Shown here in pieces: positions 25,949 to 30,267 of a stretch of DNA of 46,137 bases; position 1 is the first letter of the stretch, and the number at the start of each line of letters is the position of its first letter. The translations under genes were made by a program, and so were the position numbers. The notes beneath the pieces are model-generated. The model had not been told where the DNA came from. It made no database searches and was given only the letters and a program-made list of their open reading frames with translations. The DNA comes from a bacterium D16-56 (lineage in GTDB: Bacteria; Bacillota; Clostridia; Lachnospirales; Lachnospiraceae): positions 1 through 46,137 of the forward strand of contig RAYY01000037.1 of assembly GCA_003611875.1 (NCBI GenBank). The letters are read 5' to 3'.

Positions 25949-26872
25949 TCAGAACAGCGGCACAACTGCCCCCTCATAAGTTTCCTCTATATATGCCTTC
26001 ACCTCATCACTGGTCAGCGCCTCTACAAGAGCCACAATGTTCTCATCCTTTTCATGGCCTTCCCGAACAGCAACCACATTTCCATAGGTAGTCGCTGCAA
26101 TGGACTCCGAATCCTCCACAGCCAAAGCCTCTGACACCTTAAAACCTGCCTCAATAGCATAATTGCCGTTGATAACCGCAATATCCACATCCTCCACCAC
26201 ACGCGGAATCTGTGCTGCCTCTACCTCATAAAGATTAAGATTTTTCGGATTCTCCACAATATCATTCTTGGTTACAGTCAAATCCGCGCCTTCCTTCAGC
26301 TTAATTAAGCCCTGGGCCTCCAAAAGAAGCAGCGCTCTGGCTTCATTGCTGGTGTCGTTGGGAACTGCTACCGTAGCGCCGTCTGCCAACTCCTCCAAAG
26401 AGGTGGTTTTGCCGGCATAAATTCCAAAGGGCTCATAGTGAATGGCTGCTGCTGATACCAGCTTTGTGCCATTTTCCGCATTAAAAGACTCTAGATAAGG
26501 CAAATGCTGAAAATAGTTGGCATCCAAATCTGATGATTCCAACGCCAGGTTGGGCTGAATATAATCCATATATTCCAGAATTTCCAGCTCATATCCCTTC
26601 TGTGCCAGCACTTCCTTTGCTGCCTTTAAGATTTCCGCATGAGGCGCCGGACTTGCTCCTACTATGATTTTTTTCAGCTCCCCTGCTGCAGCAGTGGTTT
26701 CTTCTGCTTCCTTTGCATCTTCACCCTCTGCCTCTGCTTTTGTCTCGCTGCCAGTGTCGGAAGCTGCCGCCGATGTGGAGGCTGTCGCAGCCTCCGTCCC
26801 ATTCCCGCCGCAGGCTGTCAGAACAGATGCTGCCAGTACCGCTGCCGTTAAAACACTGATTGATTTTTTCAT
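25949..26872 (-). CDS. metQ: MetQ/NlpA family methionine-binding lipoprotein
   Basis: A 307-residue substrate-binding lipoprotein. Signal MKKSISVLTAAVLAASVLTAC with lipobox LTAC at residue 21, followed by a long Ala/Thr/Glu-rich linker to about residue 70 (longer than usual). The mature domain has IIVGASPAPHAEIL, LEYMDYIQPNLALESSDLDANYFQHLPYLE and AIHYEPFGIY, all typical of MetQ. Delivers methionine to MetNI at the outer membrane face of the cell. Last gene of the metN-metI-metQ order, 315 bases after metI. Confidence 0.92.
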   Translation of the reverse strand: MKKSISVLTAAVLAASVLTACGGNGTEAATASTSAAASDTGSETKAEAEGEDAKEAEETTAAAGELKKIIVGASPAPHAEILKAAKEVLAQKGYELEILEYMDYIQPNLALESSDLDANYFQHLPYLESFNAENGTKLVSAAAIHYEPFGIYAGKTTSLEELADGATVAVPNDTSNEARALLLLEAQGLIKLKEGADLTVTKNDIVENPKNLNLYEVEAAQIPRVVEDVDIAVINGNYAIEAGFKVSEALAVEDSESIAATTYGNVVAVREGHEKDENIVALVEALTSDEVKAYIEETYEGAVVPLF

Positions 26873-27187: not shown

Positions 27188-27198
27188 TTACCGAATCC
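27110..27198. repeat. 37-bp tandem repeat, about 2.4 copies, reaching into the metI stop
   Basis: TATCTTAC(T/C)GAATCC begins at 27110, 27147 and 27184, each 37 bases apart; the first two copies continue through CCTTTTCCCCATTTT. The third copy covers the last codons and TAA of metI, which suggests the array grew by duplication of the gene's 3' end. Confidence 0.85.
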
Positions 27199-27853
27199 GT
27201 TTGTCCCCCTTCTTGGACAGCTGTGTCCCAATCTCCTGAATGATCTGTACCATCACCACCAGCAAAATCACTGCAATCCACATCAGTCCCGGCTCATACC
27301 GGTAATAGCCATAGTTGATTGCCACAGCTCCCAGACCGCCTCCGCCAGTAAAGCCTGCCATGGCGGAATAGCTGAGAATCGTGGTCACGGCCAGGGCCGC
27401 ACCCAAAAGCAAGGACGGCCTAGACTCAGGCAGCAGCACCTTCCAGATAATCTGCCAGGTGGAAGCACCCATGGATTTTGCCGCCTCAATTACCCCGGCA
27501 TCAATCTCCCGGAAGGAAGATTCCACAACCCTGGCAATATAAGGCGCCGCTGCAATGGTCAGAGGAATCACAATCGCCGGAGAGCCGATCCTGGTGCCAA
27601 TCACAATTTTAGAAAGAGGCAGCACAATAAACAGCAGAATCAAAAAGGGAACGGAGCGCAGCAGGTTAATCACCAGCCCTAAAATCTTCTGAAGCCAGGG
27701 AATCGGATAAATCCCATCTGTATCCGTCACCACCAGCACAATCCCCAAAGGAAGCCCGATCACATAGGCAAACAGGGAAGAAAGGGCCACCATATAAAAG
27801 GTCTCCCAAATTGCGGTTTTCAGCATTGCAACCGTTACTGCATCAAATGTCAT
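27188..27853 (-). CDS. metI: methionine ABC transporter permease
   Basis: A 221-residue MetI permease with five predicted membrane spans (YMVALSSLFAYVIGLPLG, FLILLFIVLPL, IVIPLTIAAAPYIA and others). The EAA loop reads GVIEAAKSMGASTWQIIWKVLLPES, which docks on MetN. It overlaps the metN 3' end by 11 bases, so metN and metI are coupled. Confidence 0.93.
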   Translation of the reverse strand: MTFDAVTVAMLKTAIWETFYMVALSSLFAYVIGLPLGIVLVVTDTDGIYPIPWLQKILGLVINLLRSVPFLILLFIVLPLSKIVIGTRIGSPAIVIPLTIAAAPYIARVVESSFREIDAGVIEAAKSMGASTWQIIWKVLLPESRPSLLLGAALAVTTILSYSAMAGFTGGGGLGAVAINYGYYRYEPGLMWIAVILLVVMVQIIQEIGTQLSKKGDKRIR

Positions 27854-28862
27854 TTTTTGTCACCTCCTCAAACGGTACCTGAATCGATTTCAGATAATTA
27901 ATTATCCGGTTGGCATCTGTCTCATCCTCCGGAATCTGGATGATCATCTGCCCCATAGCCGTGCCGTTAATATCCTTTGTGGCTGCATACATAATGTTAA
28001 TAGGAACCTTGCAGGCCAGAACCAGATTGGAGATCACCGGCTCTGTGGACTCCCTTCCGTCAAAAATAATCCGAAGCTGCCTGGAATCACTGAACTTTAC
28101 CTGATTAACCGCATCTCCCAGAATCAATTGTCTGCCGATCCTGGATTTGGGCTCCGAAAAGATCTCTGACACAGTACCCAGCTCTGCAATATGGCTCTGA
28201 TCAATAATAGCCACCCTGTCACAGATCGCCTCAATCACTGCCATCTCATGAGTAATGACAATCACCGTCACCCCTATAGTCTGATTGATCTCCTTTAAAA
28301 GCGCCAAAATCGCCTTGGTAGTATTAGGATCCAAAGCGCTGGTAGCCTCATCGCACAAGATCACCTTGGGATTGGTAGCCAGAGCCCTGGCAATAGCCAC
28401 CCGCTGCTTCTGCCCGCCGGAGAGCTGCGCCGGATAGGCTCCCGCCCGGTCCGCTAAGCCCACCAGCTCCAAAAGCTCCATTGCCCGCTTTTTTCCCTCC
28501 TGCCTGGACACTCCTGCAATTTCCAGAGGAAAACATACGTTTTTTAAAATATTTCGCTGGGCCAGCAGGTTAAACTGCTGAAAAATCATCCCCATGGACC
28601 GTCTTGCCATTCTCTTCTGTCTGTCACTTTGCGCCGCCAAGTTCTCCCCCTCAAAAATCACCTGTCCGGAGGTAGGCGTCTCCAGCATGTTGATGCACCT
28701 TACTAAGGTACTCTTTCCTGCACCGGACAAACCGATGATTCCAAAGATTTCCCCTCGCTCAATATCCAGATTAATGTCCTCCAGCGCTACCACCGGACCG
28801 TTTGCCGTCTTAAATTCCTTTCCTACATTCCGCAGCCGGATAATAGGTTCTTCCAAAGCCAT
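27843..28862 (-). CDS. metN: methionine ABC transporter ATP-binding protein
   Basis: A 339-residue ATPase. Walker A GLSGAGKST, Q-loop MIFQQFNLL, signature LSGGQKQRVAIARAL, Walker B VILCDEATSALDP and the H-loop ITHEM are intact. The C-terminal ACT-like C2/NIL domain (from about residue 250, ending NYLKSIQVPFEEV) binds methionine for trans-inhibition in family members. Start is ATG at 28862 after GGAAGGGAACGGTT; the frame is open for 35 more codons upstream without a site. Upstream lies a terminator and a Met-rich small reading frame. Confidence 0.95.
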   Translation of the reverse strand: MALEEPIIRLRNVGKEFKTANGPVVALEDINLDIERGEIFGIIGLSGAGKSTLVRCINMLETPTSGQVIFEGENLAAQSDRQKRMARRSMGMIFQQFNLLAQRNILKNVCFPLEIAGVSRQEGKKRAMELLELVGLADRAGAYPAQLSGGQKQRVAIARALATNPKVILCDEATSALDPNTTKAILALLKEINQTIGVTVIVITHEMAVIEAICDRVAIIDQSHIAELGTVSEIFSEPKSRIGRQLILGDAVNQVKFSDSRQLRIIFDGRESTEPVISNLVLACKVPINIMYAATKDINGTAMGQMIIQIPEDETDANRIINYLKSIQVPFEEVTKNDI

Positions 28863-29004: not shown

Positions 29005-29033
29005 AAAAAAACGCAAACCTGAGCAGGTTTGCG
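29005..29033 (-). terminator. intrinsic terminator (possible attenuator) upstream of metN
   Basis: On the minus strand CGCAAACCTG and CAGGTTTGCG form a 10-bp stem with a 2-nt loop (29033-29012), followed by seven T (29011-29005). A near-ideal Rho-independent terminator, 58 bases after the stop of the Met-rich reading frame. Confidence 0.9.
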
Positions 29034-29091
29034 ATCTGATCTATCCGTCAAATGAACCGGAATATGTCCCTTCTTCTCACAATCCATGCAG

Positions 29092-29190
29092 CTATCTCAG
29101 GCTTTTTAAGCATACAAACATGCGGCACATGCACATCATCATGCCGCTCATCATAGCCATATCCATCTGCAGGTTTGTCCGGTTGTTCAT
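29092..29190 (-). CDS. putative methionine-rich leader peptide, 32 residues
   Basis: A 32-codon frame with 10 methionines and 3 cysteines, clustered as MAMMSGMMMCMCRM. The ATG at 29190 has GGAG 7 nt upstream, and the TAG stop is 58 bases before a strong terminator and then metN. This is the layout of a translated attenuator responding to charged methionyl-tRNA. However, another frame across the same DNA (29048-29371) is also open for 107 codons, and the ATG codons partly come from GAT-rich sequence read out of frame, so it may be coincidence. The ATG also overlaps the TGA of a third open frame. Confidence 0.4.
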   Translation of the reverse strand: MNNRTNLQMDMAMMSGMMMCMCRMFVCLKSLR

Positions 29191-29335
29191 ATCCATTCTC
29201 CATGTTCATGATCATTATGAAGCTGCAAAATATACGTGAGAGTATACTGATTAGCCAAATAAATGGAAGCTTTCCTGAAACAGCGGAAATACATTGGCAA
29301 ATCATTTGACTCACGGATATAAATTCCCCTGAAGT

Positions 29336-29358
29336 CTGTCTCTGTCTGGCAGAGACAG
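29336..29358 (-). other. 9-bp hairpin in the leader transcript
   Basis: CTGTCTCTG and CAGAGACAG pair perfectly around a 5-nt loop near the 5' end of the predicted transcript. Role unknown; could stabilise the message. Confidence 0.5.
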
Positions 29359-29386
29359 CTCCGCGGTTCATTTAGTCCATGGGCGT

Positions 29387-29415
29387 ATTTTACGCCATAG
29401 AAGAACATTTGTCAA
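29387..29415 (-). promoter_or_regulatory. strong promoter for the small transcription unit before metN
   Basis: TTGACA (29415-29410), 17-base spacer, TAAAAT (29392-29387) on the minus strand, directly after codY. A start near 29380 gives a leader of about 350 bases to the terminator at 29005. Confidence 0.75.
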
Positions 29416-29432: not shown

Positions 29433-30209
29433 CTACTTGACCGCTTTGTTATTCTTTAATTCCTCAAACACCACATCATTGAGAACCTTAATGTAAGTAC
29501 CCTTCATGCCGGAGGACCTCGACTCAATCACTCCTGCGCTTTCAAACTTGCGCAGAGCATTCACAATCACGGAGCGGGTAATGCCCACCCGATCCGCAAT
29601 CTTACTTGCCACCAGGATGCCTTCATTGCCGTCCAGCTCCTCAAAAATATGCGTAATGGCTTCCAGCTCCGAAAAAGATAATGTGCTGATAGCCGACTTT
29701 ACGATCTGAATCTTTCGGGTCTCCTCCGCATTCTCCTCATTGACTGAGCGCATCATCTCCAGCCCTACTACGGTAGTTCCGTACTCGCTGAGAATGATAT
29801 CATCAATATCATACTGCTCGTCACACTTGTAAATAAAGAGAGTTCCGAGACGTTCTCCTGCTATATCGATGGGGGTGATGATGGCCTGATACTTCTTCAC
29901 ATTCTCCTCTGCAAAGCCAAGAGTAGCCAGATTCACATTCTCCTTGGTGGAAAGAATACTCAGCAGACGCTCATTCAGCATTCGATCCACAAAGCCTCCA
30001 ACCTGATCCTCAATCAACTCCTCGATCTCATCCACGCCAGAACAGAGACCGACTCCCAAGACTTTTCCTTTTTTGCTGATAACAAGAATATTAGATAATA
30101 AAATATCACTCAAGACCTTACAAATGTCATTAAATACCACCTTATGCGAGCTATTGTTATGCAATAATTTATTGATTTTTCTCGTCTTGTCTAGTAGCTG
30201 TACGCTCAT
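29433..30209 (-). CDS. codY: GTP-sensing transcriptional repressor CodY
   Basis: A 258-residue CodY, full length. The N-terminal GAF domain (MSVQLLDKTRKINKLL... GKVLGVG) senses branched-chain amino acids; the C-terminal winged helix (ASKIADRVGITRSVIVNALRKFESAGVIESRSSGMKGTYIKVLN) binds DNA and is nearly canonical. Global repressor of nutrient-limitation genes in Firmicutes. Start ATG at 30209, 9 nt after GAGGAGG; a TTG six codons earlier is inside the ribosome site. Confidence 0.96.
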   Translation of the reverse strand: MSVQLLDKTRKINKLLHNNSSHKVVFNDICKVLSDILLSNILVISKKGKVLGVGLCSGVDEIEELIEDQVGGFVDRMLNERLLSILSTKENVNLATLGFAEENVKKYQAIITPIDIAGERLGTLFIYKCDEQYDIDDIILSEYGTTVVGLEMMRSVNEENAEETRKIQIVKSAISTLSFSELEAITHIFEELDGNEGILVASKIADRVGITRSVIVNALRKFESAGVIESRSSGMKGTYIKVLNDVVFEELKNNKAVK

Positions 30210-30267
30210 ATCGAAAAACCTCCTCAACTTGTGGTTATTTTATTCCGAATCAAAGTGTGTTATATAA

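What the first reader, a model, noticed from the sequence alone, without database searches (positions are those of the whole stretch)
29005..29415. Methionine-rich leader reading frame with terminator in front of metNIQ
Seen: a -35/-10 promoter, a 32-codon frame with 10 Met and 3 Cys codons and a GGAG site at 7 nt, then after 58 bases a 10-bp stem with seven T, then metN. Established: methionine transporters in Firmicutes are usually controlled by SAM riboswitches, Met T-boxes or repressors, and I see no SAM-I or T-box hallmark here. Inference: a ribosome-mediated attenuator sensing methionyl-tRNA, unusual for this group. Weakness: no clear antiterminator. The only 8-base alternative pairing found is CAAACCTG in the frame's 5' part with the terminator's 3' arm, and GAT-rich DNA could give ATG runs by chance.
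Basis: partly seen in the sequence, partly recalled or inferred. Interest (0 to 1): 0.7.

Follow-up and report, generated by a model that had tools for sequence, protein, structure and literature searches.

The report
Methionine-sensing leader peptide before metNIQ
In front of a bacterial methionine importer lies a short methionine-rich reading frame followed by alternative RNA hairpins, so that a ribosome running short of methionine would probably let the importer genes be read; the type of switch is classical, but no case for methionine turned up in the papers searched.

Summary
On the minus strand, a promoter (29415-29387), a 32-codon frame (29190-29092; 10 Met, 3 Cys), an intrinsic terminator (29033-29005) and metNIQ follow each other. 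Frame and terminator are conserved before metN in 16 of 24 genomes of the genus. Related leaders occur in other Lachnospiraceae genera and in two contigs named Gemmiger and Oscillospiraceae.

It is probably the conserved block after the stop codon (region 2, 29090-29077), which can pair with the terminator's 5' arm (region 3) or with codons 5-8 (region 1), which imitate that arm: trp-type logic. In folding with a ribosome mask, the mean antiterminator probability over 27 leaders is 0.67 with stalls at Met codons 7-14, 0.15 at the stop codon and 0.29 without a ribosome.

Met/Cys-rich frames followed by terminator-like hairpins precede 20 of 87 metN genes across the family, against 1 of 87 such frames on the antisense strand. 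Three other metN genes have a T-box with an AUG specifier (by eye). Nothing was tested at the bench. Reading: a new member of ribosome-mediated attenuation, sensing charged tRNA-Met and perhaps tRNA-Cys.

The parts
29387..29415 (-). promoter TTGACA / 17 / TAAAAT
   Evidence: 11 of 12 consensus matches; TTGACA with a -10-like site before the leader in the 16 genus members (by eye)
29382..29396 (-). palindrome GGCGTAAAATACGCC over the -10 box; possible operator, function unknown
   Evidence: 13-base core GCGTANAATACGC occurs once in the own genome; the core is in 9 of 16 genus leaders and in 4 of 10 leaders of other genera printed (by eye)
29231..29323 (-). dispersed repeat in the 5' part of the leader; not part of the switch
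   Evidence: 10 other matching places in the own genome at E < 0.01, many in G019 and G021; no such match listed at the homologous leaders of the other genus members
29198..29201 (-). ribosome-binding site GGAG
   Evidence: 7 nt before ATG; a purine-rich site precedes the start in the 16 genus leaders
29092..29190 (-). leader peptide frame, 32 codons plus stop, 10 Met, 3 Cys
29167..29178 (-). region 1 (ACAAACCTGCAG, codons 5-8): pairs with region 2, imitates region 3
29122..29147 (-). hairpin inside the frame (GCGGC / GCCGC)
   Evidence: 98.5% of cells paired, double changes at 3 of 5 pairs in 27 leaders
29077..29090 (-). region 2 (TGCATGGATTGTGA), likely antiterminator arm just after the stop codon
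   Evidence: pairs with region 3 (11 pairs in the window) or with region 1
29023..29034 (-). region 3, terminator 5' arm
29005..29020 (-). region 4, terminator 3' arm and T tract
   Evidence: 9-pair stem, seven T; terminator pairs covary in 27 leaders
27843..28862 (-). metN, ATPase with NIL domain
   Evidence: Pfam ABC_tran and NIL
27188..27853 (-). metI, permease
   Evidence: Pfam BPD_transp_1
25949..26872 (-). metQ, NlpA-type lipoprotein
   Evidence: Pfam Lipoprotein_9

Best explanation
It is a trp-type, ribosome-mediated transcription attenuator of metNIQ. A ribosome starts on the leader frame behind RNA polymerase. If charged tRNA-Met is scarce it stalls at the early Met codons (9, 11, 13, 14 in the window); region 1 is then covered, region 2 is free and pairs with region 3, the terminator cannot form, and metNIQ is transcribed. 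If Met is plentiful the ribosome reaches the stop codon and covers region 2, so 3:4 forms and transcription ends. If no ribosome loads, 1:2 forms and the terminator again wins in most leaders (antiterminator at or below 0.5 in 18 of 27 by the folding model). Conserved Cys codons may add sensing of charged tRNA-Cys. Shown here: the parts, their conservation, the mutually exclusive pairings, the folding logic. Inferred: translation, stalling, the signal, and regulation in the cell.
For: Frame and terminator conserved before metN in 16 of 24 genus genomes; these 16 are among the 17 genomes whose MetN is at least 74% identical to the window's. In 27 leaders every alignment gap within the first 84 columns is 3 or 6 long. 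Hairpin, 1:2 and terminator together 89.9% paired against 33-46% when slid, 13 pairs with double changes, reached by 0 of 500 shuffles. 2:3 79.4% paired against 33-41% slid. The stop codon lies within -12 to +15 nt of the start of region 2 in 27 of 27. Mean antiterminator probability 0.67 (early Met stall), 0.15 (stop), 0.29 (no ribosome); early above stop in 26 of 27 and above no ribosome in 26 of 27, above both in 25 of 27; with region 2 shuffled 0.18, 0.09, 0.19. Met/Cys-rich frames precede 20 of 87 metN genes sense against 1 of 87 antisense, each of the 20 with a terminator-like hairpin 19-79 nt after the stop. About 9 of the 20 show no evident similarity to the window's peptide (by eye). 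T-boxes before three other metN genes carry AUG specifiers (by eye). The SAM riboswitch found in the own genome sits before metK.
Against: 2:3 taken alone does not covary beyond shuffles, perhaps because region 2 must fit two partners. Codon positions vary equally (0.25, 0.23, 0.25), so there is no synonymous excess. In the single-leader duplex test against shuffled sequence most leaders are not significant (mean z -0.65 for 2:3 and -0.39 for 1:2 over 37). In the divergent leaders tested there (the MFAA type, L067, L070, L072, L073, L079, L096) no convincing antiterminator appeared, and the other divergent ones were not tested for one. By the folding model the antiterminator exceeds 0.5 without any ribosome in 9 of 27 leaders and at the stop codon in 3 of 27; early stalls exceed 0.5 in only 20 of 27; stalls at non-Met codons 2-14 work as well (mean 0.73); stalls at later Met codons average 0.40 and stay below 0.5 in 17 of 27. 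The terminator scan also finds hairpins in some regions without a leader. Met shortage would also lower initiator tRNA. No expression data.
Confidence: 0.85

Rival explanations
1. The Met-rich nascent peptide itself is an arrest peptide that senses methionine, SAM, a metal or oxidation inside or near the ribosome, and the arrest (not lack of charged tRNA) sets the RNA fold.
For: Residues beside Met are also kept: Cys in 27 of 27 and Arg in 25 of 27 at the MCRM motif, and a second Cys in 26 of 27.
Against: The kept Gly, Arg and first Cys codons lie in the covarying hairpin, so RNA pairing can explain them. About 9 of 20 Met/Cys-rich leaders before other metN genes look unrelated in sequence (by eye), which fits codon sensing.
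Confidence: 0.07
2. A ligand-binding riboswitch with a terminator; the frame is a by-product of an ATG-rich conserved RNA.
For: Strong conservation at the nucleotide level, a covarying internal hairpin, no synonymous excess.
Against: Gaps in the first 84 columns come in threes, start codon and ribosome-binding site are kept, the stop codon tracks region 2, and leaders that look unrelated keep Met/Cys-rich frames. No Rfam match in the window or in 12 loci with related leaders, except a cobalamin riboswitch at L079 1417-1492.
Confidence: 0.04
3. The frame encodes a small protein with a function of its own, and the hairpin is a partial terminator that only sets expression level.
For: Conserved peptide core around GMM..MCRMF in leaders of many genera.
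Against: Several Met/Cys-rich peptides before other metN genes look unrelated (by eye); mutually exclusive pairings are conserved.
Confidence: 0.03

Closest known systems
trp-type ribosome-mediated transcription attenuators (trpL, hisL and the like; recalled)
   Same: Promoter, short frame rich in codons of the sensed amino acid, regions 1:2, 2:3 and 3:4 mutually exclusive, stop codon at region 2, intrinsic terminator before the operon.
   Different: Met instead of Trp, His and so on; the sensed amino acid is also the initiating one; operon encodes a transporter; host is a Lachnospiraceae; an extra conserved hairpin lies inside the frame.
Histidine leader peptides of hisS/hisZ in bacilli (PMC2965389, passages) and the ilv leader of S. 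aureus (PMC5794164, title and start of abstract in a listing only)
   Same: Leader peptides in Firmicutes.
   Different: Other amino acids and genes.
T-box with AUG specifier before metN
   Same: Would read tRNA-Met charging at the same gene; T-boxes found here before 3 of 80 Lachnospiraceae metN loci scanned (specifier, by eye).
   Different: A T-box binds the tRNA directly and needs no translation (recalled); none in the window.
SAM riboswitch RF00162
   Same: Controls methionine genes in Firmicutes (recalled); 21 of 24 genus genomes have one.
   Different: In the own genome it sits before metK, not metNIQ.
[quoted passage not shown]
   Same: Leader peptide rich in a sulphur amino acid.
   Different: That paper reports no conserved terminator hairpins there, and no conserved RNA structures before methionine operons in Actinobacteria.

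Membership tests
ribosome-mediated transcription attenuator (trp type) | short translated frame with repeated codons of the pathway amino acid | tested here: met
   10 Met in 32 codons; 9-11 Met in the 16 genus leaders; that it is translated is inferred from start codon, ribosome-binding site and frame conservation
ribosome-mediated transcription attenuator (trp type) | intrinsic terminator between frame and operon | tested here: met
   29033-29005; covarying in 27 leaders
ribosome-mediated transcription attenuator (trp type) | antiterminator 2:3 exclusive with 3:4, and 1:2 exclusive with 2:3 | tested here: met
   79.4% and 81.4% of cells paired in 27 leaders; 2:3 without covariation beyond shuffles; not shown for the divergent leaders
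ribosome-mediated transcription attenuator (trp type) | ribosome at the stop codon covers region 2 | tested here: met
   distance -12 to +15 nt in 27 of 27; mask at the stop gives mean 2:3 of 0.15, but above 0.5 in 3 of 27
ribosome-mediated transcription attenuator (trp type) | readthrough rises when the cognate charged tRNA is scarce | not testable with these tools
   needs expression data
T-box leader RF00230 | match to the T-box covariance model | tested here: not met
   no match in the window
SAM riboswitch RF00162 | match to the SAM covariance model | tested here: not met
   none in the window; one match in the own genome, before metK

The most novel reading that the evidence does not exclude
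A three-state (band-pass) sulphur amino acid sensor: because Met is also the initiating amino acid, full supply ends transcription through the ribosome at the stop codon, moderate shortage of Met or Cys opens the operon, and shortage severe enough to stop initiation closes it again through 1:2. Lachnospiraceae lineages have swapped this leader and Met T-boxes as alternative readers of tRNA-Met charging at the same gene.
Probability: 0.3. Interest if true: 0.78.

Novelty: new member of a known kind. Interest (0 to 1): 0.6.

Why it matters
Firmicutes are thought to control methionine genes mainly by SAM riboswitches, T-boxes and repressors (recalled), and one study (PMC2965389, passages) said of a histidine leader in bacilli that, the ermC leader apart, its authors knew of no leader peptide system outside Proteobacteria and Actinobacteria. 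Here a leader type for methionine, without an Rfam 15 match in the sequences scanned, precedes the methionine importer in 11 of 334 Lachnospiraceae genera sampled, and other Met/Cys-rich leaders precede it in more. It makes testable how an attenuator can sense the amino acid that every ribosome needs to start.

Tried and rejected
The 107-codon frame 29371-29048 as a gene: no Pfam match, stops in 12 of 15 relatives in the stretch compared. The 10-base inverted match AAATGAACCG (near 29374-29365) with CGGTTCATTT (near 29058-29049), which closes the minimum-energy fold of the window leader: not seen in the related leaders printed (by eye), so not taken as part of the switch. SAM, T-box or another known RNA family: none in the window. 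A second frame starting in region 2 (ATGGATTGTGAG): not kept beyond the first codons in the relatives printed (by eye). Codon-position test: no synonymous excess; a first version of that table was read in the wrong phase and was replaced. Single-leader duplex z-scores were weak; I then used the alignment and ribosome-mask tests, and report both. The profile search over 391 genomes of the class found only the own genome and G343 of the same family (L102 not inspected). Paper searches for a methionine leader peptide attenuator listed none that I recognised as one; most listed papers were seen only as listings, and the library lacks most subscription journals.

Full report
Observation. The window carries, on the minus strand, metN (27843-28862), metI and metQ, preceded by codY (29433-30227). 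Between codY and metN lie a promoter-like site with 11 of 12 matches, a 32-codon frame with 10 Met and 3 Cys (29190-29092, GGAG 7 nt upstream) and an intrinsic terminator of 9 pairs with seven T. Rfam 15 gave no match in the window at gathering score; a lax scan around the leader gave six weak matches to unrelated families.

Conservation in the genus. A DNA search of 24 genus genomes found the frame and terminator region in 16 including the own genome. MetN at E up to 1e-80 was found in 20 of 24; 17 of these carry a close MetN (74% identity or more), and 16 of the 17 have the leader. The exception, G006, keeps the promoter and a terminator-like hairpin but has no Met frame. The 16 frames are intact, 28-32 codons, 9-11 Met and 2-3 Cys.

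Insertion. Counted from 10 bases before the -35 box, the start codon lies at 235 in the window, at 244 in G021 (whose extra sequence is different), and at 67-155 in 13 others; G015 was anchored differently and is not comparable. Within the window's extra sequence, 29323-29231 match 10 other places of the own genome at E < 0.01 and many in G019 and G021. I take this dispersed repeat for a later guest.

Wider distribution. A DNA pattern from the core of the frame gave 24 loci in a collection of one genome for each of 84,980 species. Because the pattern was fixed, it finds only leaders with that core. One of these is titled Candidatus Ventrimonas merdavium, so the genus may be that one; this rests on the record title. 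The other 12 all hold a Met-rich frame. For 9 the next gene reads as metN and for 2 (Gemmiger, Oscillospiraceae) as metQ followed by metN; one contig ends at the leader (genes recognised by eye). A profile of 19 leader peptides matched 14 of 397 Lachnospiraceae genomes, drawn evenly (11 of 334 genera), with 16 matches; 15 of 16 lie before metN and one (L097) is false (downstream genes mostly by eye). A profile of 24 peptides matched 2 of 391 genomes of the class, both in the same family.

Survey by gene rather than by leader. In 160 Lachnospiraceae genomes, 77 have a MetN at E up to 1e-80, in 88 places; upstream regions of 87 were examined (the second metN of G020, already seen with a Met/Cys-rich leader, was left out). 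Clusters of 6 or more Met in 15 codons occur in 17 of 87 sense and 0 of 87 antisense. Counting Met and Cys, 20 of 87 sense and 1 of 87 antisense reach 6. Of the 20, 8 were matched by the peptide profile at that place and 12 were not; about 9 show no evident similarity to the window's peptide by eye. Each of the 20 has a terminator-like hairpin 19-79 nt after the stop, though the same scan also finds hairpins in several regions without a leader. Rfam scans of 80 of the 87 loci found no SAM riboswitch, and a T-box in 3, none of them with a Met cluster. The T-box alignments show AUG at the specifier place (read by eye). So the same gene appears to be put under tRNA-Met sensing by two unrelated devices in one family. 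The one SAM riboswitch match of the own genome lies before metK.

Anatomy. In the alignment of 27 homologous leaders (16 of the genus, 11 of other genera), four pairings recur. A hairpin inside the frame is 98.5% paired with double changes at 3 of 5 pairs. The terminator is 94.4% paired with double changes at 8 of 12. Region 1 with region 2 is 81.4% paired, with double changes at 2 of 16. The three helices together are 89.9% paired against 33-46% when slid. Region 2 with the terminator's 5' arm is 79.4% paired against 33-41% slid, but does not covary beyond shuffles, as one would expect if region 2 must fit both partners, though that is an interpretation. In L090 1:2 runs to 16 uninterrupted pairs. 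The stop codon lies within -12 to +15 nt of the start of region 2 in 27 of 27. Gaps in the first 84 columns are 3 or 6 long; further on, in the last codons, gaps of one and two occur.

Logic. I folded each leader from its start codon to the end of region 3 (before region 4 exists) with a ribosome mask from 18 nt before to 12 nt after the A-site codon start. The mean probability that the terminator's 5' arm is held by region 2 was 0.29 without a ribosome, 0.67 with stalls at Met codons 7-14 and 0.15 at the stop codon; early stalls exceed the stop in 26 of 27 and no ribosome in 26 of 27, both in 25 of 27. With region 2 shuffled (6 times each, 162 cases) the values were 0.19, 0.18 and 0.09 (rows are related, so its p value of 2e-10 overstates). 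Against the model: the antiterminator exceeds 0.5 without a ribosome in 9 of 27 and at the stop in 3 of 27; early stalls exceed 0.5 in 20 of 27; non-Met codons 2-14 give the same effect if stalled (mean 0.73); later Met codons average 0.40 and stay below 0.5 in 17 of 27. The structure was derived from these same leaders. In the divergent leaders tested I did not find a convincing antiterminator.

Interpretation. The best explanation is trp-type attenuation by Met codons, perhaps with Cys codons. Cys is kept in 27 of 27 and 26 of 27 at two places, but the first of these lies in the hairpin, so only the second, and the runs of Cys in some divergent leaders, speak for Cys sensing. Diversity of sequence with constancy of Met/Cys content speaks against a specific arrest peptide. 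Translation, stalling and regulation are inferred.

Novelty. Nine paper searches listed no methionine leader attenuator that I recognised. Passages of PMC2965389 describe a histidine leader in bacilli; passages of PMC1262725 report no conserved RNA structures before methionine operons in Actinobacteria. Other papers were seen only in listings. The kind is known, the member appears new.

Noticed in passing
29323-29231 (minus strand): Dispersed repeat of about 90 bases, seemingly an imperfect inverted repeat (by eye), with 10 other matching places in the own genome at E < 0.01, common in two genus relatives, lying between promoter and leader frame.
   Followed up: partly
29396-29382 (minus strand): Palindrome GGCGTAAAATACGCC over the -10 box; its core is found once in the own genome, in 9 of 16 genus leaders and 4 of 10 printed from other genera; perhaps an operator of an unknown regulator.
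   Followed up: partly
L073 and L079, between the leader terminator and metQ: A second small frame alike in both contigs, M[KN]YSPxCxQPGVRMC... (read by eye).
   Followed up: no
L053 (G006): Close metN with the promoter and a terminator-like hairpin but without the Met frame: possible loss of the sensor.
   Followed up: no
L057/L096 (G020, second metN, 46% identical): A different Met/Cys-rich leader frame before a paralogous metN, downstream of what looks like a cysteine synthase gene (by eye).
   Followed up: no
L126, L142: Leaders before metN with runs of Cys codons (CCCC, CCAC), hinting at Cys as a second signal.
   Followed up: no
L079 1417-1492, L172 71-132, L121 655-822: AdoCbl-II riboswitch, RAGATH-18 RNA and Clostridiales-1 RNA matches in fetched loci.
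   Followed up: no
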